Positions 11,302-26,873 of a stretch of DNA of 64,000 nucleotides are shown here, piece after piece. How positions within the stretch are numbered: the first letter of the stretch is position 1; every line of letters starts with the position of its first letter. The stretch comes from Streptomyces dengpaensis (GTDB lineage Bacteria > Actinomycetota > Actinomycetes > Streptomycetales > Streptomycetaceae): NCBI RefSeq assembly GCF_002946835.1, contig NZ_CP026652.1, positions 2,666,001 to 2,730,000 of the forward strand, given 5' to 3'. A program made the position numbers and the translations under genes. The notes beneath the pieces are model-generated. The model had not been told where the DNA came from. It was given only the letters and a program-made list of their open reading frames with translations, and made no database searches.

Positions 11302-11430
11302 CGTGAACGGCAGGGGCCTGACGTCCCCTACCGGCCGCCGGACGTGAGCGACGAGCGCCTCCCAAGTTGCCGCCGGGCCTGTCACAGGCTGCCGCCCCGT
11401 GTCCTTCGCACCGCGGATTCCGTGCGAGCG

Positions 11431-11467
11431 CAGAGGTCCTCCCGTCCGCTGGACGGGAGGACCTCTG
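11431..11467. terminator. Bidirectional hairpin terminator
   Basis: Perfect 17-bp stem (CAGAGGTCCTCCCGTCC and its complement) with a 3-nt loop. It lies between the DUF1990 gene and the convergent secreted-protein gene ending at 11486, and can serve both. Confidence 0.85.
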
Positions 11468-11485
11468 ATCTGGTGTTTCCAGCCG

Positions 11486-12409
11486 TTACTTCTTGTCGAT
11501 TTGGAGCAAGCCGCTGTAGTCAGCCGTGATCGTGTGGCCGTAGAACGGGTCCGTACCGGTGGTGCGGGCGAGCACGCTGGCCTCGCCGCGCTGGAAGGGC
11601 ACGCTGCCCGTGGGCGTGGCCTGCGCGGTCCACGGCGTGGGTTCGCCCGGCACACATGCCACCGGTGTGCTGTACGAGCCGCGGACGGTGGCGCCCTCGA
11701 CGGTCTGGCTCACGGTGCCGTACGACTGGACCGTGACAGGCGCATTGCAGGTGACCGTGCCGTGGACGACGGCCTTCCCGGTGTCCCTGTCGGCGACGGC
11801 ATCGGCGGCGACCTGCAGCCCCACCGCGGTCTCGGCGGGCGGCTCCGGATTGGTCAGGCGGACTTCGCCGCGCACCGATTCCGTGGCTCCCGGACACCGC
11901 TGTTCGAAGGAAGCGTCGAGAGCCTTCACATAACCGCGGGTCGCGAACTCCACGGAGCGGATGGTGAAGGAGCCCTCGGCAAGACAGTCCCGGCCGTTGC
12001 CCCGGAGCTCGATCCGGGGCTCACCGGGGGCCGGATTGGCCTTGGCTCCGGTGTAGGTGCCGGGCACCAGCGGCTGGGACGGGCCCCACGGCGCCTCGAG
12101 ATGCAAGGACCACGTGTCGCCGTTGGCACTGTCGACAAACACACCGACGCCGGTTCCGACACCGTCGCTGGTGGTGAAGCCCTGGACGGTCATTCCGTCC
12201 TGGGAGCCATCGCCATCGGTGTACGAGTACGACTGTCCGGCGCTGATGTATTCGCCCGCATCCCCGCTGAAGGCGAAGGTTCCGGACTCGACCTCATACG
12301 CCTGTGCCGTGCCGCCCAGCAGGCCCGACACAACCGCCGTAAGGGCCAGCGTCGCAGCGACGCCGGGGGTGATGCGCGTGTACGTGCTTTTGCGTGCAAG
12401 GAATCTCAA
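11486..12409 (-). CDS. Secreted protein of unknown function, tandem paralog A
   Basis: 307 aa with a Sec signal peptide (basic start, hydrophobic core, cleavage near AQA-YE). The mature part is beta-rich and divides into an N-terminal half (EVESGTFAFSGDAGEYISAG) and a C-terminal half with paired Cys residues. It is clearly homologous along its length to the next gene: both share VESGT, SYSYTDGD or SYAYSDGE, LVPGTYTGA, GSFTI, the Y-V-(K/E)-(A/S)-LDASFEQ motif, VHGTVTC and DP-(F/V)-YGHT. No known domain recognised. Its own gap and the paralog 45 bp upstream suggest an operon from the paralog. Confidence 0.75.
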   Translation of the reverse strand: MRFLARKSTYTRITPGVAATLALTAVVSGLLGGTAQAYEVESGTFAFSGDAGEYISAGQSYSYTDGDGSQDGMTVQGFTTSDGVGTGVGVFVDSANGDTWSLHLEAPWGPSQPLVPGTYTGAKANPAPGEPRIELRGNGRDCLAEGSFTIRSVEFATRGYVKALDASFEQRCPGATESVRGEVRLTNPEPPAETAVGLQVAADAVADRDTGKAVVHGTVTCNAPVTVQSYGTVSQTVEGATVRGSYSTPVACVPGEPTPWTAQATPTGSVPFQRGEASVLARTTGTDPFYGHTITADYSGLLQIDKK

Positions 12410-12453
12410 GAAAACTCCAAATGTGAAGAGGGGTGGTGAAGTACGGCGGCCGT

Positions 12454-13365
12454 TCAGCTCTTACTGAGGGACACGCTGGCTGTCCCGAGGTCGGTGACGA
12501 CTGTGTGCCCGTACACCGGGTCAGTTGCCTGTGCCTTGAACTCGACCGCGGCATCGCCCTTTTCGAAGGGAACGCCGCCGGTGACGGTCCCGTCCGCCGC
12601 CCAGGCGGCGGGCGTGCCCGGTGTGCAGTCGACCCGGGTGTGGTACGAGGCAGTCGCAAGGCTGCCCTTGGCCACTACTTGACTGAGGCTGCCGTTCACC
12701 AGCACGTTGACCGGCTCGGTGCAGGTCACGGTGCCGTGCACGGCGGGTTTCCCGTCCGCTCCGACGGTGCCGGACGCGGCGATGTCGACGCCGAGCGTCA
12801 GCTCCGCGGGGGGCGGCGGGTTGGTGAGGTGGACCTGGCCGGTGAGCCCGGGGGCCACGCCCACGCAGTTCTGCTCGAAGCTCGCGTCCAGCGACTCCAC
12901 ATAGCCGCGCGGTCCGAGCACCATGCGGTCGATGGTGAAGGATCCCTCGGACTCACAGCCGTAGAACGTGCCGCTGACGGAGAGCCTCGGCGCACCGAGC
13001 GCCGGCGTGTCGGAGGCGCCGGTGTAAGTACCCGGGACCAACTGCTCCCCGTACTCGGCTCCCATGACGACACTCCAGCGATCGCCGTTGGCGCCTTGGA
13101 CGATGACGGTGACCTTGTTCCCGTCGTTGTCCCAGCCTGCGTACATGGCGTCGGCCGAACTTTCACCGTCGCTGTACGCATACGAGTATCCACCGCCGAC
13201 GGGGTCCCCGACTTCGCTGACGACATCGAGCGTCCCGGATTCCACTTCGACGGCATTCGCCGGCGAACTCACCAGCAATCCCATGGCCGCCGCCCCGACG
13301 ACCAGGGATGCCCCGATGGTTCTGGGCAGCCGGGTGAATGCGCCTAACCGCACGCGCAAATTCAT
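12454..13365 (-). CDS. Secreted protein of unknown function, tandem paralog B
   Basis: About 303 aa. Signal peptide (IGASLVVGAAAMGLLVSSPANA), then a mature domain homologous to paralog A, with conserved Cys residues in GCESEGSFTI, FEQNC, GTVTC and VDC. Two adjacent ATGs (13368, 13365) follow GGGGGA; the second gives slightly better spacing. Tandem duplication is the simplest origin. Four conserved Cys suggest disulfides in an extracellular beta-sandwich; the function is unknown. Confidence 0.75.
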   Translation of the reverse strand: MNLRVRLGAFTRLPRTIGASLVVGAAAMGLLVSSPANAVEVESGTLDVVSEVGDPVGGGYSYAYSDGESSADAMYAGWDNDGNKVTVIVQGANGDRWSVVMGAEYGEQLVPGTYTGASDTPALGAPRLSVSGTFYGCESEGSFTIDRMVLGPRGYVESLDASFEQNCVGVAPGLTGQVHLTNPPPPAELTLGVDIAASGTVGADGKPAVHGTVTCTEPVNVLVNGSLSQVVAKGSLATASYHTRVDCTPGTPAAWAADGTVTGGVPFEKGDAAVEFKAQATDPVYGHTVVTDLGTASVSLSKS

Positions 13366-13878
13366 CATTCCCCCAAAGGTAGGTTGACGAGCCGGGAATT
13401 CCCGACCGAGCACTGCCGCGACCCGTGCCACGCGCAGGCACGCCGACCAGGCGCCTTCGCCCCGTCCTCGCCGTGATCTGCCTGTGTGGCGTGCGGATTT
13501 CTAGTCAGGGCCATCACGGCGTGTCAACTGGTCACGCAAAAGGGAAGCTTGCGTACGGAGGTGATCGAAACCGGGATTTTTCGGCGGGGATTTCACCATG
13601 GGCGCGGCCTGACCCTGGTCGCGGCGCTCGCGGCGAACCGGGGAACCATTCCCGCCACTGACCGAAGAGGCAAGACAGCATGGGCCCAACTGATCAGCAA
13701 GGTTGGGCCAGTTACACGCTGACGACGACACCGATCGGTGGCTCCAGGCTCAGAGCAGGTTCACTTCGGTGTCACGGCTGGTGACTCGTCCATAGGCAGT
13801 CAGACAACCCGGAACGGGGAGTGCACCAAAAAATCACGAACCACCACGACACGTTACGGAGAAGGGTTCAATGGCAAC
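13366..13878. other. Gene-poor stretch, left edge of the RHS island
   Basis: About 510 bp. Short ORFs on both strands show no recognisable protein or good ribosome site. An imperfect inverted repeat GGCCCAAC ... GTTGGGCC occurs near 13683-13708. From about 13780 the sequence becomes more AT-rich, matching the immunity gene downstream. Probably the promoter of the secreted-protein pair plus recombined debris. Confidence 0.45.
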
Positions 13879-14247
13879 TCATTCAGGACCCAGGTAACGG
13901 AGTTCTTCACCGATGGGCACGATATGGACACCACCATCGCGAATCTGCCACTCGACTGCACCTTTAACTTCAGACGTTGCAACAAATAGGCCCTGAATGC
14001 CGGGGCCATCTACATCCGAGACAGAAAGGCGAGCAATCTCTTTCAATTGATCATACAGCCAAGGAACATCGCCCTCTTGAATATCGCCACCATAAAAGAC
14101 AAATGACGTCCAGTTAAACGGGCGATCAGGGAATCCCCACCCACCAGAGTAGTGACCGTCAACATTCTTCGAGATCACGCTCTCAATATGAGTCAATTGC
14201 TCTCGGTCGCACTCGATCCATCCCCTGATAGACACATACACGGCCAC
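13879..14247 (-). CDS. Candidate immunity protein for the RHS nuclease toxin
   Basis: About 122 aa, noticeably more AT-rich than neighbours, directly downstream of the RHS toxin tip ending at 14352. It has GWIECDREQL, a Trp-rich centre (YSGGWGFPDRPFNW), FYGGDIQEGDVPWL and EWQIRDGGVHI. The position and the early RGW motif are reminiscent of Imm7-type immunity proteins, but this is a weak, memory-based match. GTG at 14247 is preferred over TTG at 14313 because the family-like region begins there and GGAA lies about seven bases upstream. Expected role: binding and blocking the toxin in the producing cell. Confidence 0.6.
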   Translation of the reverse strand: MAVYVSIRGWIECDREQLTHIESVISKNVDGHYSGGWGFPDRPFNWTSFVFYGGDIQEGDVPWLYDQLKEIARLSVSDVDGPGIQGLFVATSEVKGAVEWQIRDGGVHIVPIGEELRYLGPE

Positions 14248-14351
14248 AGCATCATTCCGATCCGCTAAGGAACAATATTGCCCCGGCACCCCAATGGGTA
14301 CCGGGGCAAACAACCATACAGTACCCCCTACTGGTCCCTGTCCGTGAGGCC

Positions 14352-16544
14352 TTAAGGCAGGATAATCGGTTCCGTGTCGATTACCGCTGGCAAGCGATAG
14401 CGCTGAGAGTATCTCCTGATCGCATCGACCACCCCGGGCCCCGGGGCACCGTCGAACTGGAAGTAAGGAACTCGGCCAGTGGCCCCAGCCATCTTGAAGG
14501 TTGCCTGGGCCTGCCGCCGGAACGCCTTCCCGAGTTGAAAATTCGCGGGTTTCGCCTGCGCGACGTACGTATCACTGACGGCGTCGAACTCCCGCCCCGC
14601 AGGATCGTTTTCGAATTTGACCCGCGATTCGCCCCGGAGGCGCTCCGCCAAGGCATCTGCTGATGGGTCGGGTTTATTCACCTTTACCAAGGAACCCATA
14701 CCGGCATTGGCTGAACCGTCTCCGGCAGCCGCCCCGTCTGCCTCCCGAAAGGCCTGCCCCAGCTTGTCCGAACCTGATTGGATCCAAGGCACGCCGGCGG
14801 CGACGAGGCCCGCGCCGACTGCCATTGATGGTGCGCCCACAGGGCACAGGACCCCGGTCCCGCATTCGACGGCTCCGGAGCCGACGAGGACAAGCCCTGC
14901 GCCTCCGCTGAAGGCACCCCCGATCGTCTCAATAAGCCCCGACCAGAAGTCTCCGTTCGACAACAAGCTGCCGAGATAGTTGCCAGCGTTGGTGTTCGAA
15001 TCTCCGGGGCCAGTGATCGGCCTGCAGATCTCGGCTGGGCCCGTGCCAGAGCATGAGTAGTAGGGGCCACTGCTCGTATTCGAGGTGCCGCAGTTGCTGT
15101 TGCAGGGATGATCCGGAGCCGGTTTGGAATCGTCGACGGCTTCGTTGGGTCGCCCATTGCCTGGTTGTCCGTCCGGGCGTGTCGGACAGCCTTCCTGGGA
15201 ACCGCCGGCTCCTCCGCACGCGAGCCCCATACCGGTGGGGTCGGAGTAGGTGAGGGGGTTTTGGGCGGCGTAGCTGTAGCCATTGAGGGTTTGGTGCTTG
15301 TCGACTTCCAGCAGCGGGTCGACGCTGATGAACTGACCGATTCCGGGGTCGTATTCGCGGGCTCCGATGTGGGTCAGTCCTGTTGCTTCGTCGGCGGGCT
15401 TGCCCAGGAAGGCTTTGTCGTCGGGCCAGTTGGTGGCCTTCGGGCCGCGTGAGGCGCCGAACGGTGTCGTGTAGCGCTTCGTGACCGCGTACGTCGTGGC
15501 GTCCAGGGCGATGCTGGAAGTGCCGTGGTGGTCGGCGGCCAGGAAGTTCAGCTTGGTGCCCGAGGTGCCCGACACGGCGGTGCGGACGGCCATGGTCTGG
15601 CCCGCGGCCGTGTAGTAGCGAGTGCCGGACAGGGTCTTGGCGGTGCCCCTGACCGTCAGACGGACTTCCGTACCGCCGAGGTACAGGACCGTGTCGCCGT
15701 CGCCCTTCGCGCGGCGGATGAGGAGTTCACCCCCGGCGTCATAGAGATAGCCCGCCTCCTTCGCACCCTCGGTGGTTGCGGCGAGCTTGCCCTCGCTGTT
15801 CCAGTTCAGGGTCTGCTGAGCCGCCGTACCCGGGCGCCCGGTGGTGTTGCCGGTCGGGTCGTATGTGTACGTTCCCGCCGTGGCGCCGGTGGTCCTGGCC
15901 AGCGGGTGCGGCTGCCCCGCGGTTGTGCCGTACTCGTACGTCGTGGTGCTGTCGCCTGAGCCTGCGTGCTGGGTCTCGGTCTTGCGCTGTCCCGCGTTGT
16001 TGTACGTGTACGAGGTCCAGTACGGGGCCTGGCCGTCGATGTTCCCCACGGTGCGGCCCGAGGCCCCGCAGTCCGCCGTCTTCGGGGTCCAGGACTCCGT
16101 CAGGCGCCGGTACCCGTCGTAGGTGAAGCACTGGTAGTCGGCCTTGGTCGTGCCGCCCTGGGTCGTGCCGTCGAAGACCGACGTCACGTTGCCCGCGTCG
16201 TTCTGGGTGAAGTTCAGGTCCTGCGGCATGTAGGCGTGGACGTCGTCGGTGACGTACGCGCGGGTCAGGCGACGGAAGCCGGGCTCGTACGTGTAGTTGA
16301 CGTACGCCTTCTTCGCCGAGCTGGTCGGGTCGGTGCCCAGGATGAGCTGGGTCAGGTCGCCCTGCGGTGAATAGGCCACGTCCTGCCGGTAGTTGGTGGT
16401 GCCCTGGGAGCTCAGCACCTGCCCGGTGGCGTTGTACTTGTAGCTGACCGTCTCGGTTGCCAGGCCGCCGACGGCTGGCTCGGTGGCCCCCTTCAGAGTG
16501 CCGTCCAGGTTGTAGTTGCCGCTGAAGGACAGCGTCTTGGCCAC
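14352..16544 (-). CDS. Orphan RHS core plus C-terminal toxin tip (restriction-endonuclease-fold candidate)
   Basis: Open for 730 codons from a GTG (16544) that is probably not a true start. Residues 1 to about 435 are YD-repeat RHS core ending in the conserved GAREYDPGIGQF ... DPTG boundary, almost identical to the intact RHS protein at 20010. After DPTG a different tip follows: a Gly/Pro/Asn linker, a hydrophobic Gly-rich segment (about residues 530-590), and a terminal domain with REFDAVSDTYVAQAKPANFQ and GRVPYFQF. The E/D...D...QxK pattern fits a PD-(D/E)xK nuclease (Tox-REase type). It lacks export sequence and an authentic 5' end, so it is likely silent unless recombined. Confidence 0.72.
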   Translation of the reverse strand: MAKTLSFSGNYNLDGTLKGATEPAVGGLATETVSYKYNATGQVLSSQGTTNYRQDVAYSPQGDLTQLILGTDPTSSAKKAYVNYTYEPGFRRLTRAYVTDDVHAYMPQDLNFTQNDAGNVTSVFDGTTQGGTTKADYQCFTYDGYRRLTESWTPKTADCGASGRTVGNIDGQAPYWTSYTYNNAGQRKTETQHAGSGDSTTTYEYGTTAGQPHPLARTTGATAGTYTYDPTGNTTGRPGTAAQQTLNWNSEGKLAATTEGAKEAGYLYDAGGELLIRRAKGDGDTVLYLGGTEVRLTVRGTAKTLSGTRYYTAAGQTMAVRTAVSGTSGTKLNFLAADHHGTSSIALDATTYAVTKRYTTPFGASRGPKATNWPDDKAFLGKPADEATGLTHIGAREYDPGIGQFISVDPLLEVDKHQTLNGYSYAAQNPLTYSDPTGMGLACGGAGGSQEGCPTRPDGQPGNGRPNEAVDDSKPAPDHPCNSNCGTSNTSSGPYYSCSGTGPAEICRPITGPGDSNTNAGNYLGSLLSNGDFWSGLIETIGGAFSGGAGLVLVGSGAVECGTGVLCPVGAPSMAVGAGLVAAGVPWIQSGSDKLGQAFREADGAAAGDGSANAGMGSLVKVNKPDPSADALAERLRGESRVKFENDPAGREFDAVSDTYVAQAKPANFQLGKAFRRQAQATFKMAGATGRVPYFQFDGAPGPGVVDAIRRYSQRYRLPAVIDTEPIILP
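15330..16544 (-). repeat. RHS core direct repeat, copy A
   Basis: 1,215 bp that matches 21021-22235 in the same orientation at a constant offset of 5,691 bp, meaning no net indel. Only scattered substitutions were seen (for example TTCCGGGG/TTCCCGGG near the left end). It encodes the last part of the RHS core up to the toxin boundary. Long enough for homologous recombination between the two copies. Confidence 0.88.
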
Positions 16545-16905
16545 GCCTGCTGGCCGTCTGGCCGTCGCTGGTGCCGGAGTCGTACGAGATCGTCAGGTCG
16601 GGCCAGGGACCCGCAGCCGACGGCGGCACCCGCAGCGGGTACCACCAGGTGAAGTTGCCTGACGAGCCACCGACATCCCAGGTCGCTGACGACGACAGCG
16701 GAGTCGCCTTGTAGTCGCCGCCACCCGACTTGGTGCCCGCGGCCACCGCAAGAACGGTCGGCGCGCCACCGGCCGGAGAAGGTGACGGGCGCCGAAAGCT
16801 CGTGCGCGGAACGGTCGTTGGTGAAGTCGAGGGGCTCGCAGGTACGGCACATCGAGGCGGACTGGTTGGTGAGGACGCAGCCGGGCAGTTGCAGGTCAGC
16901 ACCAT
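16545..16905 (-). pseudogene. Remnant of the RHS N-terminal region, frameshifted
   Basis: Reading leftwards, two frames together give pieces typical of actinobacterial RHS proteins upstream of the YD repeats: QLPGCVLTNQSASMCRTC and DFTNDRSAHELSAPVTFSG in one frame, then GGGDYKATPLSSSATW, NFTWWYPLRVPPSA and ISYDSGTSDGQTA in another. The last piece runs directly, out of frame, into the core at 16544, so everything between this domain and the last third of the core has been deleted. At least one further frameshift lies inside the remnant. Confidence 0.7.
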
Positions 16906-16980
16906 GCCCTCACCGGCTGGAAGCGTGCCAAGCCCCCAGCGGCGAGTCCGTGCCGGGGCAGACGTGCGGTGCTGCTGGTA

Positions 16981-17286
16981 TCAGGTTGCGCCGTGTGCTG
17001 CTGCGGCAGCTTCGATGCGCCGGGCCAATTCGATGTCGTGCTCGGCTACGTACCCGCCAAGGTCGCTTGAGCTAATGGAGACGCGCACGGTCTTGTACCC
17101 GAGAGTCGCGTCCGAGTGGTGCCCGAGGTCATCCTGAATGGCCGCGATGTGAACGATGAACGCCGCGCCCTGGATGTGCGGGATCGAGTACGAGCGCACA
17201 ATCTTGCGGCCGTCTGTAGACCAACCGTTCAGGTTACTGATGCGCTCTTCGATCTGTTCCGTCGACAGAGCCTCAGCCACGGTCAA
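16981..17286 (-). CDS. Pterin-4a-carbinolamine dehydratase-like protein (PCD/DCoH family)
   Basis: 101 aa, about the usual family length. WSTDGRKIVRSYSIPHIQGAAF resembles the family's W...F.F.dF..A..F start, and LGHHSDATLGYKTVRVSI carries the HH-x-D...Y..V core that binds the pterin. A final D-x-x-LA helix (EHDIELARRIE) matches too. The family dehydrates 4a-hydroxytetrahydrobiopterin or, in animals, acts as a transcription cofactor. It starts at TTG 17286, overlapping the regulator's stop (TTGA), with AAGGGGG as ribosome site, so it is translationally coupled to the XRE gene. No aromatic amino acid hydroxylase is nearby. Confidence 0.8.
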   Translation of the reverse strand: MTVAEALSTEQIEERISNLNGWSTDGRKIVRSYSIPHIQGAAFIVHIAAIQDDLGHHSDATLGYKTVRVSISSSDLGGYVAEHDIELARRIEAAAAAHGAT

Positions 17287-18536
17287 ACCCCCTTTCCGAT
17301 GGGCGCCAGCACCTCCGCCAGGTCCTGGCCGATCCGCTCAGCTTGCCACGGCGCCATGGCCACCTCCAGCGCCGCCAACTCCCGCCGGGCCCGTTCCGAA
17401 CCCGTTTCCACCACGATTCCGGCCGCGTGCCGCGCAAGCTCTACCGCGCGCTCCGGCTCCCGCATCGCAGCGGCAGCCATAGCCTGTCGCCCCGTCCATA
17501 CGCCGACATCCCGCCGGGACGTCGGCGGAGCTGACGGGATGACCTGTTGCCACACATGCTCAGCTTCGTGGGCCAGGCCAAGCCGTCCGTAGCACGTAGC
17601 GCGCTGCACCTCGACGTAGTGCGGAGTACGCAGGCAAGCTGTACCCCACACCTCGACGTCGACCCTGCCGAGCAGCCGCGCGGCCTTGTCGAGCAGCTCG
17701 TCGACCTGGCGCCGGTCGTTGATGAGGGAGGCACCGTGCGCCTGCTGCTGTAGCGCGAACACCTGCACTTCCGGCGACAGGTTCCGGGCGTCCATCAGCG
17801 CGCTCTCACAGAGATCCATCACGGCCGTGCCCATGCCCTGATCGGTGCGCGCCATGGCACGGTCCACCAGGGCACAGGCGACCGCTTCCCGGTCGCGGGA
17901 TCTGTGCGCGAGTTCCTGTGCGACGTCGTGCCAGCGCAGCGCCGTTACCGGATCGCCTGCGTCGAGATGGAGCCAAGCGGCGAACGTTGCGTACGCCACC
18001 CCGACGCGCGCCATTCGCTGACGAGTCGGCCACTCCGCCGTGTTGACGAGCTGGCAGATCAGGTCGCACTGAGCGACGATCGTGCCGATAAGAGCACGTG
18101 GTCCGAGCAGCATGTCCGCGCGGTAGTGGCCATCCAGTTGCTGTTCGAAGTACGGGATCAACGCAGGGTCGACGTGCCGGGGAGCGATCACTCTCGTGGT
18201 CAGCACCATGGCTGCAGCGGTGCCGACGAACATCCGGCGGTCCACGTCGGCCACCTCCTCGCGGGGTGACCTGCTCACTTCGGCATGCGCTTCCCGCCGT
18301 GTCTGCCGGGCGACTGCCGCCGCTCGATCCAGCATCGCCAGCGGGACACCGAACACGATCGCAAGATGTCTGCGGGTTTCCGGGGTCGGGATGCGCCTGT
18401 CGCGCTCCCAGCGTCCGACCTCGCGTGCGTCCTTCGTGACCGTACCGGACACCCGGCAATAATCATCAGCGGTCTGCTGCTGCGTCCAACCGCGCTCGTT
18501 GCGTAGCCGCTTGAGCAGTTGGCCAATGGTCTCCAT
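17283..18536 (-). CDS. XRE-family transcriptional regulator with TPR-like C-terminus
   Basis: About 417 aa. Residues 1-60 form a Cro/C1 helix-turn-helix (IGQLLKRLRNERGWTQQQTA ... EVGRWERDRRIPTPETRR). The rest is helical, with Ala/Leu-rich repeats suggestive of TPRs, as in streptomycete regulators that sense peptides or partner proteins. A stretch AAAMVLTTRVIAP near residue 110 is mildly hydrophobic. ATG at 18536 follows two in-frame GTGs and is the start of the domain. It is divergent from three small genes beginning at 18712 and coupled to the PCD-like gene downstream. The 175-bp divergent gap is the likely operator region. Confidence 0.82.
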   Translation of the reverse strand: METIGQLLKRLRNERGWTQQQTADDYCRVSGTVTKDAREVGRWERDRRIPTPETRRHLAIVFGVPLAMLDRAAAVARQTRREAHAEVSRSPREEVADVDRRMFVGTAAAMVLTTRVIAPRHVDPALIPYFEQQLDGHYRADMLLGPRALIGTIVAQCDLICQLVNTAEWPTRQRMARVGVAYATFAAWLHLDAGDPVTALRWHDVAQELAHRSRDREAVACALVDRAMARTDQGMGTAVMDLCESALMDARNLSPEVQVFALQQQAHGASLINDRRQVDELLDKAARLLGRVDVEVWGTACLRTPHYVEVQRATCYGRLGLAHEAEHVWQQVIPSAPPTSRRDVGVWTGRQAMAAAAMREPERAVELARHAAGIVVETGSERARRELAALEVAMAPWQAERIGQDLAEVLAPIGKGV

Positions 18537-18711
18537 CACCACGGTGCCTCCGTCCTGGCCCCCATTCTGGCCCCCCAATTGGCCCGTAGACAGGCTCCTC
18601 CCCAAAACCAACTGCCCGGCTTTCCTGGACAGAGGGCTAAACCCACAAGACCCCCGCGACCGTGCGACCGGTCCGTGGGCGTGGCCACCAGCTATCGAGG
18701 AGCTGACGACA

Positions 18712-19050
18712 GTGAGCATTATCCACACGTACGTGCGGTGGGTGCTGGGCGTGTTCGCGACTGGCAGGGGCAAGCGCCGGGCCGACTCCCGCCCCGCCGC
18801 ATCCGCCCCCGCCACCCGCCCAGAGGCACCCCGTATCCCGACTTCCCGATTTCGCGACTTCCCACCCCGCGTTTCTCCGTCCGGGGAGGATGCGCCGCTC
18901 GACGGCCGTGCTGCGGCCCTGCGGCCGTATGTGCTTGAGGTCGAGCGGGAGCCGGCGCGGCAGCACCGGCGCCGTGTTGCCTTGGTCCTCGCAGCGGACT
19001 TCGGCGTGGACCTTGACCAGCATGTGGTCGGCGCTGAAGGAGTGGCGTGA
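18712..19050 (+). CDS. Small conserved streptomycete protein of unknown function (first of three overlapping genes)
   Basis: 112 aa. GTG at 18712 follows GAGGAG by nine bases. It begins VSIIHTYVRWVLGVFATGRG, a possible membrane-associated helix, continues through a Pro/Arg-rich linker, and ends RRRVALVLAADFGVDLDQHV. This two-block shape is familiar from small genes beside XRE regulators in other Streptomyces (recalled, not checked). The stop overlaps the next start (TGATG). Function unknown. Confidence 0.68.
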   Translation: MSIIHTYVRWVLGVFATGRGKRRADSRPAASAPATRPEAPRIPTSRFRDFPPRVSPSGEDAPLDGRAAALRPYVLEVEREPARQHRRRVALVLAADFGVDLDQHVVGAEGVA

Positions 19051-19265
19051 TGGGGTCGACGGGAATGCGGCCACAGCGGACCGGGGGCCAGGTCGAGGAG
19101 CCGGGGTGGCGGTCGGCGGAATGCACGGTGGCCACGCGGCCGGGCTATGAAGATCTACACGAAGAGTGCCGCCGGACGGCGGATGTGCCGTTGCCCCACA
19201 CGGTCGGCGTGCTGCTGGTGCGGCGCTGTCCGTGCTCCTGCCACACACCGGGAGACGGCCGGTGA
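19050..19265 (+). CDS. Small Cys-containing protein of unknown function
   Basis: 71 aa, ATG at 19050 (TGATG overlap with the preceding stop), GAAGGAG seven bases upstream. The C-terminus has VLLVRRCPCSCHTPGD, a C-x-C-x-C-H cluster that could bind a metal ion, with a further Cys at HEECRRT. The stop overlaps the next GTG. Coupled translation with both neighbours suggests the three products work together. Confidence 0.62.
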   Translation: MGSTGMRPQRTGGQVEEPGWRSAECTVATRPGYEDLHEECRRTADVPLPHTVGVLLVRRCPCSCHTPGDGR

Positions 19266-19468
19266 ACGCGGGGAAGCGGCCCGAGCCGGGTGCCTCACGC
19301 ATGACCATCGTCACGTACCGGATCGGCCCCGATGGGGAACACACCATGCCGTCGAAGCGGATCACGGTCACGGCCGACCCAGACCCGGAACGGCTCGCCA
19401 CCCCTCTCACATGGCCTGCGTGCCAGTGCCCGCGCTGCCGCACCGGGAACGGGCCCCGCGCCCGGTAA
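19262..19468 (+). CDS. Small protein with C-x-C-x-x-C cluster
   Basis: 68 aa from GTG 19262 (GTGA overlap). It contains MTIVTYRIGPDGEHTMPSKR, a short beta-like segment, and PACQCPRC, a C-x-C-x-x-C cluster likely to bind zinc. An alternative start is the internal ATG at 19301, which would give about 55 aa. No family assigned. Third member of the operon divergent from the XRE regulator. Confidence 0.55.
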   Translation: MNAGKRPEPGASRMTIVTYRIGPDGEHTMPSKRITVTADPDPERLATPLTWPACQCPRCRTGNGPRAR

Positions 19469-19536
19469 CCGCCCTGATCGGCCGTCCGCCCCGCGTCCTG
19501 CTGCCAGGCGGGAGCGCGATCTACGATAGACAGAAC

Positions 19537-19574
19537 ACATGAGGTCCCAGGAGCGGGCTCCTGGGACCTCATGT
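19537..19574. terminator. Bidirectional hairpin terminator between the small operon and the immunity gene
   Basis: Perfect 17-bp stem (ACATGAGGTCCCAGGAG and complement) with a CGGG loop, between convergent genes ending at 19468 and 19591. Confidence 0.85.
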
Positions 19575-19590
19575 TGGCCATTTCCAATTC

Positions 19591-20013
19591 TCAAATATGC
19601 AGTTCCGCCGGAAACTTATCCGGGTTTCCGTAAGTTAGCACTCTGCGCAGCCCATCGCGGAGGTTCTGTACATCAGAACCGGGTGCGATATCGAGAGTCA
19701 TTTCCTGGTCCGGAAGGGAGAGTGCGCCAACTGCCTCAGAGGTGAAGCGGAAGGAGATTTGATCTGCCGACAGGGCGACACTTTCGATTCCTCCGTAGTG
19801 GACTCCCCCTGTCTCGTTGACGACGCAGTAGCTGTCCAGGCCTAGCCTTCGCTCCTGCTCGCCAGGTTCTTCCAAGCCGCTCTGGAGGGTGAGATAGCGC
19901 CCCTCGCCGTATTCATCCTCGGCGATTCCTACAATAAAGCAGGAATCCGGCACATTCTCCTGTACGGCCACGACTCTGACGAGCCACTCAGGACGGTTCA
20001 CCGCGTTGCTCAC
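19591..20013 (-). CDS. Imm10-like immunity protein
   Basis: 140 aa. GTG at 20013 shares GTGA with the stop of the RHS toxin gene, so toxin and immunity are translationally coupled. The sequence follows the Imm10 pattern as remembered: early FIVGIAEDEYGEGRYLTLQ, then DSYCVVNETGGVHYGGIESV, a Phe/Leu-rich strand pair and a C-terminal helix (LRDGLRRVLTYG). Imm10 proteins are predicted antidotes in polymorphic toxin systems. Expected role: neutralising the deaminase tip encoded immediately upstream. Confidence 0.78.
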   Translation of the reverse strand: MSNAVNRPEWLVRVVAVQENVPDSCFIVGIAEDEYGEGRYLTLQSGLEEPGEQERRLGLDSYCVVNETGGVHYGGIESVALSADQISFRFTSEAVGALSLPDQEMTLDIAPGSDVQNLRDGLRRVLTYGNPDKFPAELHI

Positions 20014-23000
20014 CCCGCACTGCTCCAGGTTTCTTGCTCCCAAACGTACACGAACGTTGCTCCTGTTTCGGCGGCCGCGCGCCTCATGGAGCCTTGGCAC
20101 TGCGTGCATGGCGGATTGGTGCCCGCGATCGTCACGATGTCACCAGGTTTCACCGGGGCCAGGTTCGCGTAGCGATCTCCCGAGATCTTGACGTGTGGAC
20201 TTGCACCCGACATGCGCGTCACACGACTCTCGGTATGACTGGCTTGTGAATTGTTGGGGAACCCGAGGGCCTTCTCCTCTGGCGTCTGGGTCCCGCTCCG
20301 AAGGGAGTATGAGTTCGTCAACTTGCCCTCCGCGCTTCGGACCTCCACCCCTGCCCAGTGAGTGGTCTTCGATGTCGGCCCGACGATACTGCCAGCGTAA
20401 GGCTTGTTTGGGCGCCCATAACTGGGCCTGTGCCCGAAGATCGCTGCGAGCGCGCTGGGGACTCGATAGTAATCACTGTTGAGGTCATATCCGGCCTCGC
20501 TCGCTACCCAGTTGTCGAACTGGTTTCCGTAATCGCAGCCGGGCATTCCTGGGCCGCCGTATCCGCGGCAGTCACTGTCGAAAATCCATCCGGCGTATTC
20601 CGCCATATGCGGAACGTTGCTGACCGCGCCGTAAAACAGCTCGCCGGTACCTGAGCAAAAGCTGGCGAGAAATCCCCAGGATCCACACCCTTTTGAATCC
20701 CCAGGCCCCTTTTTGAGCCCGCCGCCACCACTGCTGGTGTTTCCTGAACTGCTGGTGGAAGCTGTGCCGCTGCTATCAGGGTCTGCGTAGACAGTCGAGC
20801 ATGAGCCGTGGTGGCAGCTGCCGCCGCCCGGGTTGTTCGGGTCGATGGGGCCGTCCGTGATGATCTCGCCTGATCCGTCGCCCTTGGGGGTGCCGACTCC
20901 GCAGACGTCTGCGAAGCACAGACCGGTGGGGTCGGACTGGGTGATAGGCGAGTTGCCGGCATAGCTGTAGCCGTTGAGCGACTGGTGCTGGTCGACCGAC
21001 AGGACCGGGTCGACGTTGATGAACTGGCCGATTCCCGGGTCGTATTCGCGGGCTCCGATGTGGGTCAGTCCTGTTGCTTCGTCGGCGGGCTTGCCCAGGA
21101 AGGCTTTGTCGTCGGGCCAGTTGGTGGCCTTCGGGCCGCGTGAGGCGCCGAACGGTGTCGTGTAGCGCTTCGTGACCGCGTACGTCGTGGCGTCCAGGGC
21201 GATGCTGGAGGTGCCGTGGTGGTCGGCGGCCAGGAAGTTCAGCTTGGTGCCCGGAGTGCCCGACACGGCGGTGCGGACGGCGATGGTCTGGCCCGCGGCC
21301 GTGTAGTAGCGGGTGCCGGACAGGGTCTTGGCGGTGCCCTTGACCGTCAGGCGGACTTCCGTGCCGCCGAGGTAGAGGATCGTGTCGCCGTCGCCCTTCG
21401 CGCGGCGGATGAGGAGTTCACCGCCGGCGTCGTAGAGGTAGCCCGCCTCCTTCGCGCCCTCGGTGGTTGTGGCGAGCTTGCCCTCGCTGTTCCAGTTCAG
21501 GGTCTGCTGAGCCGCCGTACCCGGGCGCCCGGTGGTGTTGCCGGTCGGGTCGTATGTGTACGTTCCCGCCGTGGCGCCGGTGGTCCTGGCCAGCGGGTGC
21601 GGCTGCCCCGCGGTTGTGCCGTACTCGTATGTCGTGGTGCTGTCGCCCGAGGCGGCGTGCTTGGTCTCGGTCTTGCGCTGTCCCGCGTCGTTGTACGTGT
21701 ACGAAGTCCAGTACGGAGCCTGACCGTCAATGTTCCCCACGGCGCGGCCCGAGGCCGCGCAGTCCGCCGTCTTCGGGGTCCAGGACTCCGTCAGGCGCCG
21801 GTACCCGTCGTAGGTGAAGCACTGGTAGTCGGCCTTGGTCGTGCCGCCCTGGGTCGTGCCGTCGAAGACCGACGTCACATTGCCCGCGTCGTCCTGGGTG
21901 AAGTTCAGGTCCTGGGGCATGTAGGCGTGGACGTCGTCGGTGACGTACGCGCGGGTCAGGCGACGGAAGCCGGGCTCGTACGTGTAGTTGACGTACGCCT
22001 TCTTCGCCGAGCTGGTCGGGTCGGTGCCGAGGATGAGCTGGGTCAGGTCGCCCTGCGGTGAATAGGCCACGTCCTGCCGGTAGTTGGTGGTGCCCTGGGA
22101 GCTCAGCACCTGCCCGGTGGCGTTGTACTTGTAGCTGACCGTCTCGGTTGCCAGGCCGCCGACGGCTGGCTCGGTGGCCCCCTTCAGAGTGCCGTCCAGG
22201 TTGTAGTTGCCGCTGAAGGACAGCATCTTGGCCACGCCCGCCGCGACCAGCGGTTCACTGTCGGGGAGCTGTAGTTCACTGGCGGTGGCGCGGTAGAGGC
22301 TGTCGAAGGTCTTGACCTTCTGGGTGTACGCCTTGGTGAGGCTGCCGTCGTAGCGTACGGCCGTGTCCTGCTGGCCCTTGGCCACGGCGTCGTAGCCCCA
22401 GAACGCCAGCTTGTTGGCGTCCGTCCGCTCGGTCTGCCACTTGGCAGTCTTGCGACTGAGTTCGTCGTAGCCGTAGAGCAGCTTCTTGCCCGCCGCGTCC
22501 GTCGTCCAGTCGACCCGGTCGAGACTGTCGTACGCCGTGTGCGACGCACCCTTGTCTGGGTCAACGGCATCCACCTGGCGACCGAAAAGGTCATACGCGT
22601 ATGACCACTGGGCGTCGTCCGGACCCGTGATGGTCTTCTGCTGACCGGCCGGGGTGTATGTGTAGTCAGTCGCGGTGTACGAGGTGCCCGTGGGCTGCGG
22701 GCCGGCGTACTCACGGCGCTGCGTGGTCTGGCCGAGCGCGTTGGTGATGACCGAGGTGGCCTGGCCGCCTGTGGCGGCCGAGGTGGACACTATGTCACCG
22801 GTGTACGTGTTGTTGATCGTCACCCGGCGCACGAGCGGGTCGCCGTTGGTGGAGAGGTCCCGACCGCTGGTGACCGTCTGGCTGACACGGCCCGCCGCGT
22901 CGTACGTGGTGTTGGTCTCGATCGGCGCCTGGCCCCCGTCGGTCTCCACGAACTGGCCGTTGGGCGCCGTGGTCGAGTCCCAGATGTCGCTGCGGGTGCC

Positions 23001-24413
23001 GACGACGAGGCCGCGCGAGTCGTAGAGCGTCAGGGAGACGAGCCGTCCGCCACGTGGTGTGGGGGTCTGGACCTGTCGGGGTCGCAGCAGGGAGTCGTAG
23101 AGCTCGTAGGTCGTGTTGTAGCCCGACCCGTCACCCTTGATGGCACCCGTCGACACCCAGGAGATGTCAGTGGCGTTGCTCGTGACGTGGTAGCCGTAGA
23201 CGTAGTTGGGCGTGGCGTTCAGGACGCGCAGCCGATTGGGCAGCCAGACCTGGGTGGTGCGCCCGAGGCTGTCGTACGTGGTCTCGGTGACCTTGTTGTT
23301 GGGGTCGGTGACCTTGGTCGGAGAGCCGGTCGCGAAGTCCACCAGCGTTGTCGTCTGGTAGGTCTTGGCGTCGGTGACGGTCGTGGAGGTCAGTGGGCCG
23401 ACAGCCGCCGGGGTGTAGGCGGTGGTGGCCACCGTCAGGTCGTTGGTGTCCTTGACCACCGTGGGACGGCCCAGGGTGTCGTAGTCGGTGGTGGCAATCC
23501 TCTGCCAGCTCGGGGTGCCATCGGCCGCGTAGGACTTCACCCGGCCCGCCCACTGGGCCTCGCCCTTGGTCGGGGTCTGGGTGGTCGTATAGGTCTTGGA
23601 GTCGTAGGCGGTCGCCGTGTCCGAGATGACGTCGCCGGCGCGAGTGGAGTCGGTCGGCAGATCCAGGTCCGCGTTCAGCGTCGCGCAGGGCTTGGCCACC
23701 ACGCGGACACGGGAGATCAGCCCGTTGATGCCGACCGTGTCGTTGCGGGCGTAGGTGTTACGGGTGCACTTCTCGTCCCCGTCGACAGCGTCGTCGCCGC
23801 TGTCATCGACCCTGGACGCCATCCCGTAGCTGTCATACGTGGTCACGATGGTGCGGACGCGATCCCGCGGAGTGATGCCGCTCGTGATGTTGGTACGCGT
23901 GTGGGTGGCGCCCGTGCGCACGTAGTACGCCTCGGTATCCGCGTACGACTTGTGCTGGGTGGCCGTTTTCTGTGACCAGGGGTCGTTGACCGTGCCGGAG
24001 ACTTCGTCCGCGCCGTTGTAGGTGACGGACTCCCGGGTGAAACCGGCGTACTGGTCGGAGTCGGTGATCTCGCCGGCCTTGATACCGGTCACGGTGGCGG
24101 TTTTGCGCTGGTCCTTGTCCGGGGTCTTGCCGTCCGGCCCCAGGACGCGGTCGCCGTTCATACCGCGCAGGTAGACGGTGACGGCCTTGGACTGTGTGCC
24201 GTTCGGTGCGCCGGTGATGTGGGTGACCTCGCCGAAGCCTCGCCATACCGACCAGGTGCGCTCCTTCTCCGGAGTGAGCGGGTCCTCGTTGTAGTGCCAG
24301 GCTCCACCGCCGGAGTACAGGTAGGTGTGCTGCACCGCTTCCCCGTCGAACAGGACCCGGAAGCCGTCCGCGTCTGGTGTGAGGAGACTTGGCCGACGAT
24401 CTGGCCAGGGCAA
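20010..24413 (-). CDS. RHS-repeat protein with C-terminal deaminase-type toxin, 5' truncated
   Basis: 1,467 codons from a TTG at 24413. About 1,130 residues of YD-repeat RHS shell end in GAREYDPGIGQF ... SDPTG. The variable tip (about 290 aa) has a Cys-rich linker, a Gly-Tyr region, then a deaminase-like end: SHTESRV (H-x-E, zinc ligand and catalytic Glu) and about 35 residues on TNPPCTQCQG (PCxxC zinc ligands), finishing near WEQETW. These are the zinc motifs of nucleic-acid deaminase toxins (Pput_2613-like, from memory). No signal peptide or usual N-terminal domains: the 5' end abuts an inverted RHS scrap, so the gene appears truncated. Confidence 0.82.
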   Translation of the reverse strand: MPWPDRRPSLLTPDADGFRVLFDGEAVQHTYLYSGGGAWHYNEDPLTPEKERTWSVWRGFGEVTHITGAPNGTQSKAVTVYLRGMNGDRVLGPDGKTPDKDQRKTATVTGIKAGEITDSDQYAGFTRESVTYNGADEVSGTVNDPWSQKTATQHKSYADTEAYYVRTGATHTRTNITSGITPRDRVRTIVTTYDSYGMASRVDDSGDDAVDGDEKCTRNTYARNDTVGINGLISRVRVVAKPCATLNADLDLPTDSTRAGDVISDTATAYDSKTYTTTQTPTKGEAQWAGRVKSYAADGTPSWQRIATTDYDTLGRPTVVKDTNDLTVATTAYTPAAVGPLTSTTVTDAKTYQTTTLVDFATGSPTKVTDPNNKVTETTYDSLGRTTQVWLPNRLRVLNATPNYVYGYHVTSNATDISWVSTGAIKGDGSGYNTTYELYDSLLRPRQVQTPTPRGGRLVSLTLYDSRGLVVGTRSDIWDSTTAPNGQFVETDGGQAPIETNTTYDAAGRVSQTVTSGRDLSTNGDPLVRRVTINNTYTGDIVSTSAATGGQATSVITNALGQTTQRREYAGPQPTGTSYTATDYTYTPAGQQKTITGPDDAQWSYAYDLFGRQVDAVDPDKGASHTAYDSLDRVDWTTDAAGKKLLYGYDELSRKTAKWQTERTDANKLAFWGYDAVAKGQQDTAVRYDGSLTKAYTQKVKTFDSLYRATASELQLPDSEPLVAAGVAKMLSFSGNYNLDGTLKGATEPAVGGLATETVSYKYNATGQVLSSQGTTNYRQDVAYSPQGDLTQLILGTDPTSSAKKAYVNYTYEPGFRRLTRAYVTDDVHAYMPQDLNFTQDDAGNVTSVFDGTTQGGTTKADYQCFTYDGYRRLTESWTPKTADCAASGRAVGNIDGQAPYWTSYTYNDAGQRKTETKHAASGDSTTTYEYGTTAGQPHPLARTTGATAGTYTYDPTGNTTGRPGTAAQQTLNWNSEGKLATTTEGAKEAGYLYDAGGELLIRRAKGDGDTILYLGGTEVRLTVKGTAKTLSGTRYYTAAGQTIAVRTAVSGTPGTKLNFLAADHHGTSSIALDATTYAVTKRYTTPFGASRGPKATNWPDDKAFLGKPADEATGLTHIGAREYDPGIGQFINVDPVLSVDQHQSLNGYSYAGNSPITQSDPTGLCFADVCGVGTPKGDGSGEIITDGPIDPNNPGGGSCHHGSCSTVYADPDSSGTASTSSSGNTSSGGGGLKKGPGDSKGCGSWGFLASFCSGTGELFYGAVSNVPHMAEYAGWIFDSDCRGYGGPGMPGCDYGNQFDNWVASEAGYDLNSDYYRVPSALAAIFGHRPSYGRPNKPYAGSIVGPTSKTTHWAGVEVRSAEGKLTNSYSLRSGTQTPEEKALGFPNNSQASHTESRVTRMSGASPHVKISGDRYANLAPVKPGDIVTIAGTNPPCTQCQGSMRRAAAETGATFVYVWEQETWSSAG
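21021..22235 (-). repeat. RHS core direct repeat, copy B
   Basis: Partner of copy A at 15330-16544, same strand, same length. Here the repeat lies inside the long RHS frame and continues upstream into unrepeated core, so B is the parental-type context and A the partial copy. Confidence 0.88.
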
Positions 24414-24451
24414 AGGCGGAGAACGCCGAAGTCCTGTTCGCCGACCGAGCG

Positions 24452-24594
24452 ACTACAACCTGGACGGCACCCTCGGCGGGGCCACTGAGCCCGCCGTCGG
24501 CGGGCTGGCCACCGAGATGGTCAGCTACAAGTACAACGCCACCGGGCAGCTGCTGAGCTCCCAGGGCACCACCAACTACCTGCAGGACGTGGCC
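24452..24594 (+). repeat. Inverted fragment of RHS core
   Basis: On the + strand this encodes NLDGTLGGATEPAVGGLA and SYKYNATGQLLSSQGTTNY, the counterpart of minus-strand sequence near 22068-22207 and 16377-16516 with some substitutions. It is an inverted third copy sitting directly at the truncated 5' end of the long RHS gene. It points to an inversion or template-switch event that removed the N-terminal part of the gene. Confidence 0.8.
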
Positions 24595-24677
24595 TCTTCG
24601 CGCCCGGCCGCAGTGTCCACGCGGTGGGTCGCCGGGACGGGGATCGCGGAAGGTGACACGAACCGGATCACGAGACA

Positions 24678-25265
24678 CTAGTCGCGAGGGAACTCGTCCG
24701 TCTTGAGGGTGAGGCCGACCACCTGGTCAGTGAGGTCCACCGGGTCGCCGAACGCGATCTTCGTCTCGGTGGTGTAGTCGCCGTCCTTGGGCTGAGTGAA
24801 AAGGCGGCACCGGGCCTGGTAGGGATCGACGATGAGGTAGACGGGGACTTCAGCGAGCGCGTACGTGAGTTTCTTGGTGCCGTAGTCATTGGCGGCGGTG
24901 TCCTTGGAGATGACCTCGGCCACGAACTCGACATCCTGGTAGCGCCAGCGGCCCTTGCTGTCCTTCACCGACTGATCGGCCATCGCCGCCACGTCGCAGG
25001 CGAAACCGTTCAGGTGCCCGGGAAAGTCGATCCGCACGTCCGACGCCAGCCGCTTGCGGTCGTACCTGCCGCGGAGTTGCTCCGCGATGCCGAGGATGAT
25101 CTCCCAGTGCGTTTGCCGCTGTGGTGACATGAAGATGTTCCCCCCGACGATCTCGACCTTCGTTCCCTCGGGGACGGGCATCTTCTCGAGCCACTCGAAC
25201 ATGACGTCCAGAGTCAGCTCGCCGCTTTCCTCGGCCATCTCGATCCTGTCTTCAAGGACGGTCAT
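24678..25265 (-). CDS. Uma2 family (DUF820) endonuclease-like protein
   Basis: 195 aa, typical length. It has VEIVGGNIFMSPQRQTHWEI, DVRIDFPGHLNGFACDVAAM and FVAEVISKDTAANDYGTKKL: the D...E-V-x-S...D...K arrangement of the Uma2 restriction-endonuclease-like fold. ATG at 25265 follows GGGGAGGAG by six bases, so it is probably expressed. Biological role of the family is unclear; they are abundant in actinobacteria and cyanobacteria. Stands alone between the RHS scrap and gene remnants. Confidence 0.85.
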   Translation of the reverse strand: MTVLEDRIEMAEESGELTLDVMFEWLEKMPVPEGTKVEIVGGNIFMSPQRQTHWEIILGIAEQLRGRYDRKRLASDVRIDFPGHLNGFACDVAAMADQSVKDSKGRWRYQDVEFVAEVISKDTAANDYGTKKLTYALAEVPVYLIVDPYQARCRLFTQPKDGDYTTETKIAFGDPVDLTDQVVGLTLKTDEFPRD

Positions 25266-25353
25266 CGTGGCGCTCCTCCCCGGCCGCGACTCGGTCGAGT
25301 GCAGCCGCGCAGTTCAACGATACGTATGGTGACCGGGGTACGCCCAGATTCGG

Positions 25354-25466
25354 TCAGGCGGTTCCGGCCGGGTACGGCTCGCCCAGGTGCCACGCCTGGT
25401 ACATCGCCTCCGCGAAGCCTTCCGCGATCTTGTGTTCGCCGCTCGCGTTCGGGTGCGTGCCGTCAC
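25354..25466 (-). pseudogene. C-terminal remnant of an SGNH/GDSL hydrolase
   Basis: The reverse strand reads DGTHPNASGEHKIAEGFAEA followed by MYQAWHLGEPYPAGTA and a TGA at 25356-25354. DGxHPN is block V of SGNH hydrolases, with the catalytic Asp and His. The frame breaks where IS4-type transposase sequence begins at about 25461, so only the last 37 codons survive. Confidence 0.75.
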
Positions 25467-25815
25467 GACCCGGCCGGCGTCGAGCAGGAGATGTGGTCCC
25501 TGCTCACCCTCTACCAGCTCCTGCGCCGCACGATAGTAGAGGCAGCGGAGTCCCGGCCGGGCACCAACCCCGATCGCTGCGGCTTCACCATCGCCTTCCA
25601 GAGCGCCCGTGACCTGCTCATTCGTGCGGAAGGAATCACCGAGCAGCGGCTCGGGGAGATCGGCCACCGACTCCTGTCGGCCCTGCTGCCCGGGCGCCGC
25701 CTCCGCGTCAGCACCCGCAAGGTTAGGTCCCCCATCTCGCGCTACGCGGAACGCAAGATGGACGGCCGCCCCGATGACAGCCGGGCCGTGACCTCGATGC
25801 CCATCACGACCCTTG
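25461..25815 (+). pseudogene. C-terminal remnant of an IS4-family transposase
   Basis: Encodes HDPAGVEQEMWSLLTLYQLL, RTIVEAAESRPGTNPDRCGF, TIAFQSARDLL, and SPISRYAERK. This is the C-terminal block of streptomycete IS4-family transposases, including the Q-E-x-W and ARDLL motifs. There is no start, no N-terminal DDE core and no inverted repeats, so it is a dead fragment whose left edge interrupts the SGNH gene. Confidence 0.75.
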
Positions 25816-25939
25816 CGCCATCACCACCCGAGCCGCCCTTGCCCGCGACGACCATCCCGCAGTACGCCGGGCCCGGCAGCGCGTCCTCGGCATCCCTGAT
25901 CGTGTGGGCCGCCGTCGCCGTCCGGTGCTGCGTACTCAA
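25742..25939 (-). CDS. Doubtful small ORF, unknown function
   Basis: 65 codons from TTG 25939, with GGAGG seven bases upstream. MSTQHRTATAAHTIRDAEDA and a Gly-rich centre (GMVVAGKGGSGGDG) match nothing recognised. It overlaps the antisense end of the transposase remnant, which argues against it. The rest of 25816-26164 shows no other gene. Confidence 0.2.
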   Translation of the reverse strand: MSTQHRTATAAHTIRDAEDALPGPAYCGMVVAGKGGSGGDGARVVMGIEVTARLSSGRPSILRSA

Positions 25940-26164
25940 GGCTCCGCCTCCGTCCCCGTCCGCAGAACCCCTGCTCGTACGGCGAGGGTTGGACTACTCT
26001 GCGTGTTCTGACCATTACGAGAATGGCCCCGGACTTGAGGGCGAACACGGCAGGCGAGCCGACGTTCTCGGCAACGCGACGCACATTCCACACCTTCCAC
26101 GCCTCAGGGGCTTCACGGCCTTCACGGCTCTCATGCCCCCTCACAACCCTCGCGGAGGAGCGCG

Positions 26165-26829: not shown

Positions 26830-26873
26830 ACTGCCGGGCGCCCCCGCCGAATCCCACCCCACCTCACCCCACC

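What the first reader, a model, noticed from the sequence alone, without database searches (positions are those of the whole stretch)
14352..22235. Direct RHS-core repeats set up a toxin-tip switching cassette
Copy A (15330-16544) and copy B (21021-22235) are the same length, same strand, at a constant offset of 5,691 bp. Each is followed by a different toxin tip and its own immunity gene: a nuclease-like tip with 13879-14247 for A, a deaminase-like tip with an Imm10-like gene for B. Recombination between the copies would join the long RHS shell to the nuclease tip and delete the deaminase, its immunity gene, the XRE regulator, the PCD-like gene and the three small genes. Orphan RHS/CDI tips used as a reserve are known in enterobacteria; a streptomycete version carrying a regulator block inside the switchable interval would be new to me.
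Basis: partly seen in the sequence, partly recalled or inferred. Interest (0 to 1): 0.85.

Follow-up and report, generated by a model that had tools for sequence, protein, structure and literature searches.

The report
Two headless toxin genes with repeats
A Streptomyces genome carries two neighbouring toxin genes that have lost their front parts, with nearly identical middles and different toxic ends; the repeats could recombine, but no intact delivery part was found to switch, so it looks like a decayed member of a known kind of toxin reserve.

Summary
The repeat is real: 15330-16544 and 21021-22235, same strand, offset 5,691, 97.2% identical (34 of 1215 differ), leading into different toxin tips with their own immunity genes. 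The switch interpretation is only partly supported. Intact relatives have frames of about 2,080-2,430 codons (26 of 34 loci); both copies here are headless. In B, Rhs DNA homology stops near 24342, so roughly 740-830 N-terminal residues are missing. A is a frame-broken head remnant joined out of frame to the core. A search with one relative's head found no intact head of this subfamily elsewhere in the genome, so an A x B crossover would give another headless gene. The regulator and PCD genes are a two-gene unit also seen on two plasmids without annotated rhs nearby. The block is a 15.6-kb insertion. Tandem same-strand cores occur in 6 of 42 other genomes, none with a repeat this alike; three fragmented genomes show 90-98% core-end repeats. 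A-B differences are patchy (P 0.0006-0.0056), fitting past recombination. Best reading: a decayed member of the known main-plus-orphan Rhs kind.

The parts
11293..26866 (.). 15.6-kb insertion holding the whole rhs block; its borders lie about 60 bp apart in the closest relative
   Evidence: window 11292 and 26867 map to 3752 and 3689 of L089; 11291 and 26874 map to 1691 and 1849 of L090
13879..14247 (-). probable immunity gene of tip A (family not in Pfam or NCBIfam)
   Evidence: no family for 13879-14313; 46 homologs, one of them the window's own; P0141 and P0163 share organism and listed contig length with Rhs/Tox-REase-3 proteins P0092 and P0178
14352..16544 (-). copy A open frame (730 codons): Rhs core plus Tox-REase-3 tip, no head; the GTG at 16544 is only the first start codon of the frame
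14415..14690 (-). tip A, Tox-REase-3; FD...QAK stretch conserved with relatives
15330..16544 (-). direct repeat, copy A
16548..16957 (-). remnant of the N-terminal part (about residues 190-330 of intact relatives), spread over two frames and joined out of frame to the core
16981..17286 (-). pterin-4a-carbinolamine dehydratase-like gene, part of a two-gene unit
17283..18536 (-). NsdA-family XRE regulator, other half of the two-gene unit
19537..19574 (-). 17-pair hairpin after Imm10, terminator-like
   Evidence: 6 terminator-like sites found in the region, 5.2 expected
19591..20109 (-). Imm10-family gene, probable immunity gene of tip B (true start perhaps near 20013, at the toxin stop)
   Evidence: Imm10 is listed with the Pput_2613 deaminase in PMC3482391
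20010..24335 (-). copy B open frame, 1441 aa as predicted in the database (1467 aa from the first TTG): Rhs body, core and deaminase tip, no head
20031..20372 (-). tip B, Pput_2613-like deaminase; HTE and PCxxC conserved with relatives
21021..22235 (-). direct repeat, copy B
24342..24343 (.). breakpoint where Rhs DNA homology of copy B ends
   Evidence: 9 of the 11 long genes used start to align at 24341-24342, the others at 24329 and 24348; tblastn runs on to 24425 in 7 of 7 queries, without residues I find alike
24450..24610 (+). third, inverted piece of the Rhs core; over 24449-24610 it differs from A and from B at 19 of 162 positions, where A and B are identical

Best explanation
A 15.6-kb insertion between a DUF1990 gene and glgP carries the remains of at least two, probably three, copies of one subfamily of secreted Rhs (WapA/YD-repeat) polymorphic toxin. 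Two keep an open core, an intact-looking toxin tip and a probable immunity gene. Both have lost the N-terminal delivery part (signal peptide, SpvB-like region): B by a break near 24342, A by an internal deletion of roughly 1,120 codons plus frame breaks. The 1.2-kb repeat is a good substrate for homologous recombination, and its patchy differences suggest that recombination or conversion has acted there. But an A x B crossover would only hang tip A on a second headless body. The locus therefore works today, at most, as a silent store of two toxin/immunity pairs, giving immunity and donor DNA for recombination with an intact gene arriving from outside. Shown: repeat, tips, missing heads, insertion, the separate regulator unit, patchy divergence. 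Inferred: immunity function, past conversion, present silence.
For: Repeat and tips. Missing heads; full-length proteins with the same deaminase tip (P0004, 2173 aa) and the same nuclease tip (P0092, 2163 aa). Signal-peptide-like start in 94 of the 113 listed relatives that have more than 600 residues before the B start, not in A or B (a rough rule of mine). Frame breaks and deletion in A. No protein identical to copy A among the 120 listed of 350 hits, as if gene callers did not predict it. Insertion. Separate regulator unit. Patchy divergence: P 0.0056 uniform, 0.0006 outgroup-weighted. Related layouts in the genus.
Against: The core, tips and immunity genes are fully open, and A-B substitutions look constrained (29.5 synonymous, 26.5 nonsynonymous over 435 codons, dN/dS about 0.29), so either decay is recent or the headless genes still do something. 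Salmonella orphan tips are transcribed from inside the gene (PMC7043789, passages), so silence is not shown. The patchy divergence could also come from import of foreign Rhs DNA. Short Rhs proteins on long contigs exist in other Streptomyces (for example P0054, 1426 aa; P0185, 726 aa; upstream DNA not examined), which could mean that headless forms are kept.
Confidence: 0.76

Rival explanations
1. Working main-plus-orphan switch: B is the main toxin, A the reserve tip, and a crossover in the repeat exchanges deaminase for nuclease.
For: Repeat longer and more alike than in Salmonella, and more alike than in any of the six other tandem pairs examined; tips and immunity genes look intact; patchy divergence.
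Against: B has no head and no signal-peptide-like start, and its Rhs DNA homology ends near 24342; no intact head of the subfamily found in the genome.
Confidence: 0.1
2. The two headless genes act inside the cell as toxin-antitoxin modules, expressed from promoters inside the core.
For: Open frames, conserved motif residues and immunity genes; dN/dS below 1; precedent in Salmonella orphan rhs (PMC7043789, abstract and passages).
Against: No expression data; the promoter-like scan finds 1 site against 1.1 expected by chance, and it does not cover other promoter types.
Confidence: 0.1
3. The arrangement is an assembly artefact around a long repeat.
For: Two near-identical 1.2-kb stretches are a classic trap.
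Against: 34 differences between the copies and different flanks on both sides; an assembly of 3 contigs; the cluster of the 1441-aa protein, 100% identical over 98% of the query, has 4 members on 2 contigs, though both contigs may stem from one genome.
Confidence: 0.03

Closest known systems
Salmonella Typhimurium LT2 rhs-main / rhs-CT-orphan locus (PMC3967940; abstract and passages seen)
   Same: Direct repeat of the core end, different tips, each with its own immunity gene; a crossover would fuse the upstream body to the downstream tip.
   Different: There the main gene is full length and the repeat is 522 bp at 95%; here the upstream gene is itself headless and the repeat is 1215 bp at 97.2%.
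Streptomyces tandem Rhs tip arrays
   Same: Tandem same-strand repeats of the core end, 83-98% alike.
   Different: L076 has a 1608-codon frame in front of one orphan; L077 and L078 have six and five core-end segments. The core of our subfamily matches L077 and L078 only at 24-46% identity and L076 not at all, so they are another Rhs subfamily.
Secreted WapA/YD-repeat toxins of Streptomyces, about 2,170 aa (for example P0004, P0092)
   Same: Same subfamily (listed relatives are mostly 60-72% identical to B), with the same tip in P0004 (deaminase) and P0092 (Tox-REase-3).
   Different: They keep the N-terminal part that both copies here lack.

Membership tests
Main-plus-orphan Rhs locus | Direct repeat of the core end shared by two tip-bearing genes in tandem | tested here: met
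Main-plus-orphan Rhs locus | Different tips, each followed by its own immunity gene | tested here: met
   pairing inferred from families and co-occurrence, not assayed
Main-plus-orphan Rhs locus | Upstream gene is full length and can be exported | tested here: not met
   no intact head of the subfamily found elsewhere in the genome
Main-plus-orphan Rhs locus | Recombinants between the repeats arise | not testable with these tools
   one genome per species and no reads; patchy divergence is only indirect
Rhs/WapA polymorphic toxin (sequence family) | Rhs_assc_core before the tip, RHS repeats in the body | tested here: met
   TIGR03696 E 2.1e-18 (A) and 1.9e-17 (B); PF05593 in B, not in A
Rhs/WapA polymorphic toxin (complete gene) | N-terminal export signal and SpvB-like part | tested here: not met
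Type II toxin-antitoxin module | Both genes expressed in the same cell, toxin neutralised by the immunity protein | not testable with these tools
   no expression or activity data

The most novel reading that the evidence does not exclude
Two decapitated Rhs genes are kept by selection as a headless reserve: tips and immunity genes are maintained and the core is homogenised by recombination, either as intracellular toxin-antitoxin modules or as donor cassettes for Rhs genes arriving by transfer, so that a lineage without any deliverable gene of that subfamily still holds and exchanges its arsenal.
Probability: 0.15. Interest if true: 0.5.

Novelty: new member of a known kind. Interest (0 to 1): 0.3.

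Why it matters
It shows that a repeat with two tips is not enough to call a switch: the body in front must still be deliverable. It also shows that tandem Rhs cores are not rare in Streptomyces (6 of 42 other genomes) and points to better places (L076, L077, L078, core-end repeats of 90-98%) for testing tip switching in a Gram-positive genus.

Tried and rejected
Rejected: B as a full-length main gene; the XRE-PCD block as a dedicated regulator (the unit lies on two Streptomyces plasmids with no annotated rhs gene within 6 kb; PLSDB tables are incomplete; one search found a strong relative of the regulator in 5 of 60 other genomes, neighbourhoods not examined); 'three small genes'; a tRNA-linked island (no tRNA in the window). 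The longest identical tract alone (195 nt) is not unusual (P 0.077 uniform, 0.126 weighted). The sum of the four longest tracts is (0 of 5000 uniform; P 0.0014 weighted), but I had seen the tracts before choosing it; the fixed-window test is the fairer one. Structure prediction was not used. Strains of the same species were not available (search for related loci says that near records may be left out; the genome search holds one genome per species). Literature: judged by titles and abstract starts, searches listed no paper on tandem Rhs tips in Streptomyces; only open-licence papers are held, so this is weak.

Full report
OBSERVATION. The two copies are as described: 15330-16544 and 21021-22235, minus strand, offset 5,691, 34 differences in 1215 bases and no gap (97.2%). 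Identity drops to background right upstream of 16544/22235 and over about 140 bases downstream of 15345/21036. The tips are Tox-REase-3 (PF15647, 1.4e-21) for A and Pput_2613-like deaminase (PF14427, 6e-22) for B, with Imm10 behind B (1.1e-11). Imm10 is listed with the Pput_2613 deaminase in PMC3482391 (passages). The gene behind A matches no family, but two of the 46 proteins found with it, P0141 and P0163, carry the organism name and listed contig length (188127 and 6855) of the Rhs/Tox-REase-3 proteins P0092 and P0178, which supports the pairing. Motif residues of both tips agree with relatives (HTE and PCxxC in the deaminase; FD...QAK in the nuclease); that these are the catalytic ones is recalled.

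HEADS. Of the 34 loci, 26 have a stop-to-stop frame of 2079-2426 codons over the core; six have shorter frames inside their contig (L050, L056, L061, L064, L068, L071), so truncated forms are not unique to the window; L052 and L072 are cut by or lie near a contig end. Within the DNA held, each of the 34 shows one core match, except L054 (core partly duplicated inside one frame) and L051 (an extra inverted remnant). Of 119 listed protein relatives of B (the best 120 of 1977 hits, without P0003), 113 carry more than 600 residues before the point where B starts, and the median over the 119 is 750; the other six are shorter proteins, one of them (P0054, 1426 aa) starting like B. A rough signal-peptide rule of mine is met by 94 of these 113 and by neither copy here. 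With eleven of the 26 long genes as DNA queries, homology to B begins at 24341-24342 in 9 of 11 (24329 and 24348 in the others), at about codon 744-833 of those frames. At protein level tblastn runs on to 24425 in 7 of 7 queries, and three loci match from residue 1, but I see no convincing similarity there. Upstream lies the inverted piece of the core (24450-24610), different from A and from B at 19 of 162 positions where A and B are identical. In front of the core of A lies a remnant of about residues 190-330 (16957-16548), spread over two frames and joined out of frame to about residue 1438 of L039. A search of the whole genome with residues 1-719 of one relative found only this remnant and a 34-45% identical stretch in a 2309-codon frame at C1:3367482-3369830.

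CONSEQUENCE. The regulator and PCD genes match a 1.7-kb stretch at 79% DNA identity on two Streptomyces plasmids, with no annotated rhs gene within 6 kb on either side. The PLSDB gene tables are incomplete, which limits this.

ORIGIN. Searches covered 41 genomes (40 others) for glgP and the DUF1990 gene. In 15 of the 40 the matches lie on one contig 24 bp to 6.4 kb apart, in 9 of these 15 under 300 bp apart (read by eye); the other 25 are not comparable (one gene not found, other contigs, or far apart). In the window they are 15.6 kb apart. In the closest relative the borders fall at window 11292 and 26867, 62 bp between them there (L089). So the whole block is an insertion.

RECOMBINATION SIGNAL. 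A-B differences are clustered: over fixed 75-nt windows P = 0.0056 (uniform) and 0.0006 (weighted by divergence from six outgroups). The first 300 bases, where outgroups diverge strongly (0.24-0.32), hold 2 differences, while 450-600 (0.19) holds 11. This fits conversion between the copies or import of foreign Rhs DNA. Substitutions are constrained overall (29.5 synonymous, 26.5 nonsynonymous over 435 codons including the diverging end; 21 and 12 in the first 400).

HOW ORDINARY. Rhs core ends occur in 145 of 150 Streptomyces genomes, this one included. I then searched 43 of the 59 genomes with at most three contigs (23, 20; 16 were not searched again). Same-strand pairs within 15 kb occur in 7 of 43, this one included: G000, G009, G064, G081, G090, G107, G124 (read by eye; a pair in G005 whose second match is below the family cut-off was not counted). 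In the six others the DNA likeness of the core ends is 80% over 979 nt (G064), 73% over 588 (G090), 84% over 6.4 kb (G107) and 73% (G124); in G009 and G081 the repeats found (90% over 715 nt, 93% over 245 nt) lie outside the core ends. So none of the six approaches our 97.2% over 1.2 kb. Three fragmented genomes, picked from the best matches listed, do: L077 with six core-end segments (83-97%), L078 with five (91-98.5%, up to 582 nt), L076 with a 1608-codon frame and one orphan (90% over 376 nt). Four loci of our own subfamily in other species (L080-L083, 7-18 kb each) have one core. The layout is not new to the genus; the length of the repeat is at the strong end.

KNOWN KIND. Salmonella main/orphan rhs: 522 bp at 95%, recombination fuses main body and orphan tip (PMC3967940, abstract and passages). 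Main and orphan tips there are also transcribed from inside the gene and described as toxin-antitoxin modules (PMC7043789, abstract and passages). Replacement of tips by standalone cassettes is described for polymorphic toxins in general (PMC3482391, abstract and passages).

VERDICT. Observation confirmed; switching interpretation only partly supported; a decayed new member of a known kind.

Noticed in passing
L077 (1-16000) and L078 (1-16000): Streptomyces arrays of six and five tandem Rhs core-end segments, up to 98.5% alike: better candidates for tip switching than the window.
   Followed up: partly
L076: 7815-8186 and 9772-10143: A 1608-codon rhs frame followed about 2 kb downstream by an orphan core end (376 nt, 90%).
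   Followed up: partly
window 14278-14309: 14-pair hairpin between the stop of toxin A and its immunity gene, terminator-like.
   Followed up: no
window 12011-12360 and 12982-13316: Two neighbouring minus-strand ORFs (11486-12409, 12454-13431) share a weak DNA similarity (59%); neither has a Pfam match above the curated cut-off; a possible tandem pair within the insertion.
   Followed up: no
L054: 8281-9135 and 9379-9984: An Rhs frame of 2306 codons whose core is partly duplicated inside it.
   Followed up: no
L088: 2355-8753 and 9948-16319: Tandem duplication of almost a whole rhs gene, 84% over 6.4 kb.
   Followed up: no
window 16981-18687: NsdA-type XRE plus PCD-like gene as a 1.7-kb two-gene unit shared with two Streptomyces plasmids (L097, L098), with a GNAT gene next to it in both.
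   Followed up: partly
G007, G013, G014 between glgP and the DUF1990 gene: Gaps of 6.4, 5.0 and 2.4 kb at the same site suggest a recurrent insertion spot.
   Followed up: no
G073 and G090 chromosome ends: Rhs core ends with identical scores near opposite chromosome ends on opposite strands, perhaps within terminal inverted repeats.
   Followed up: no
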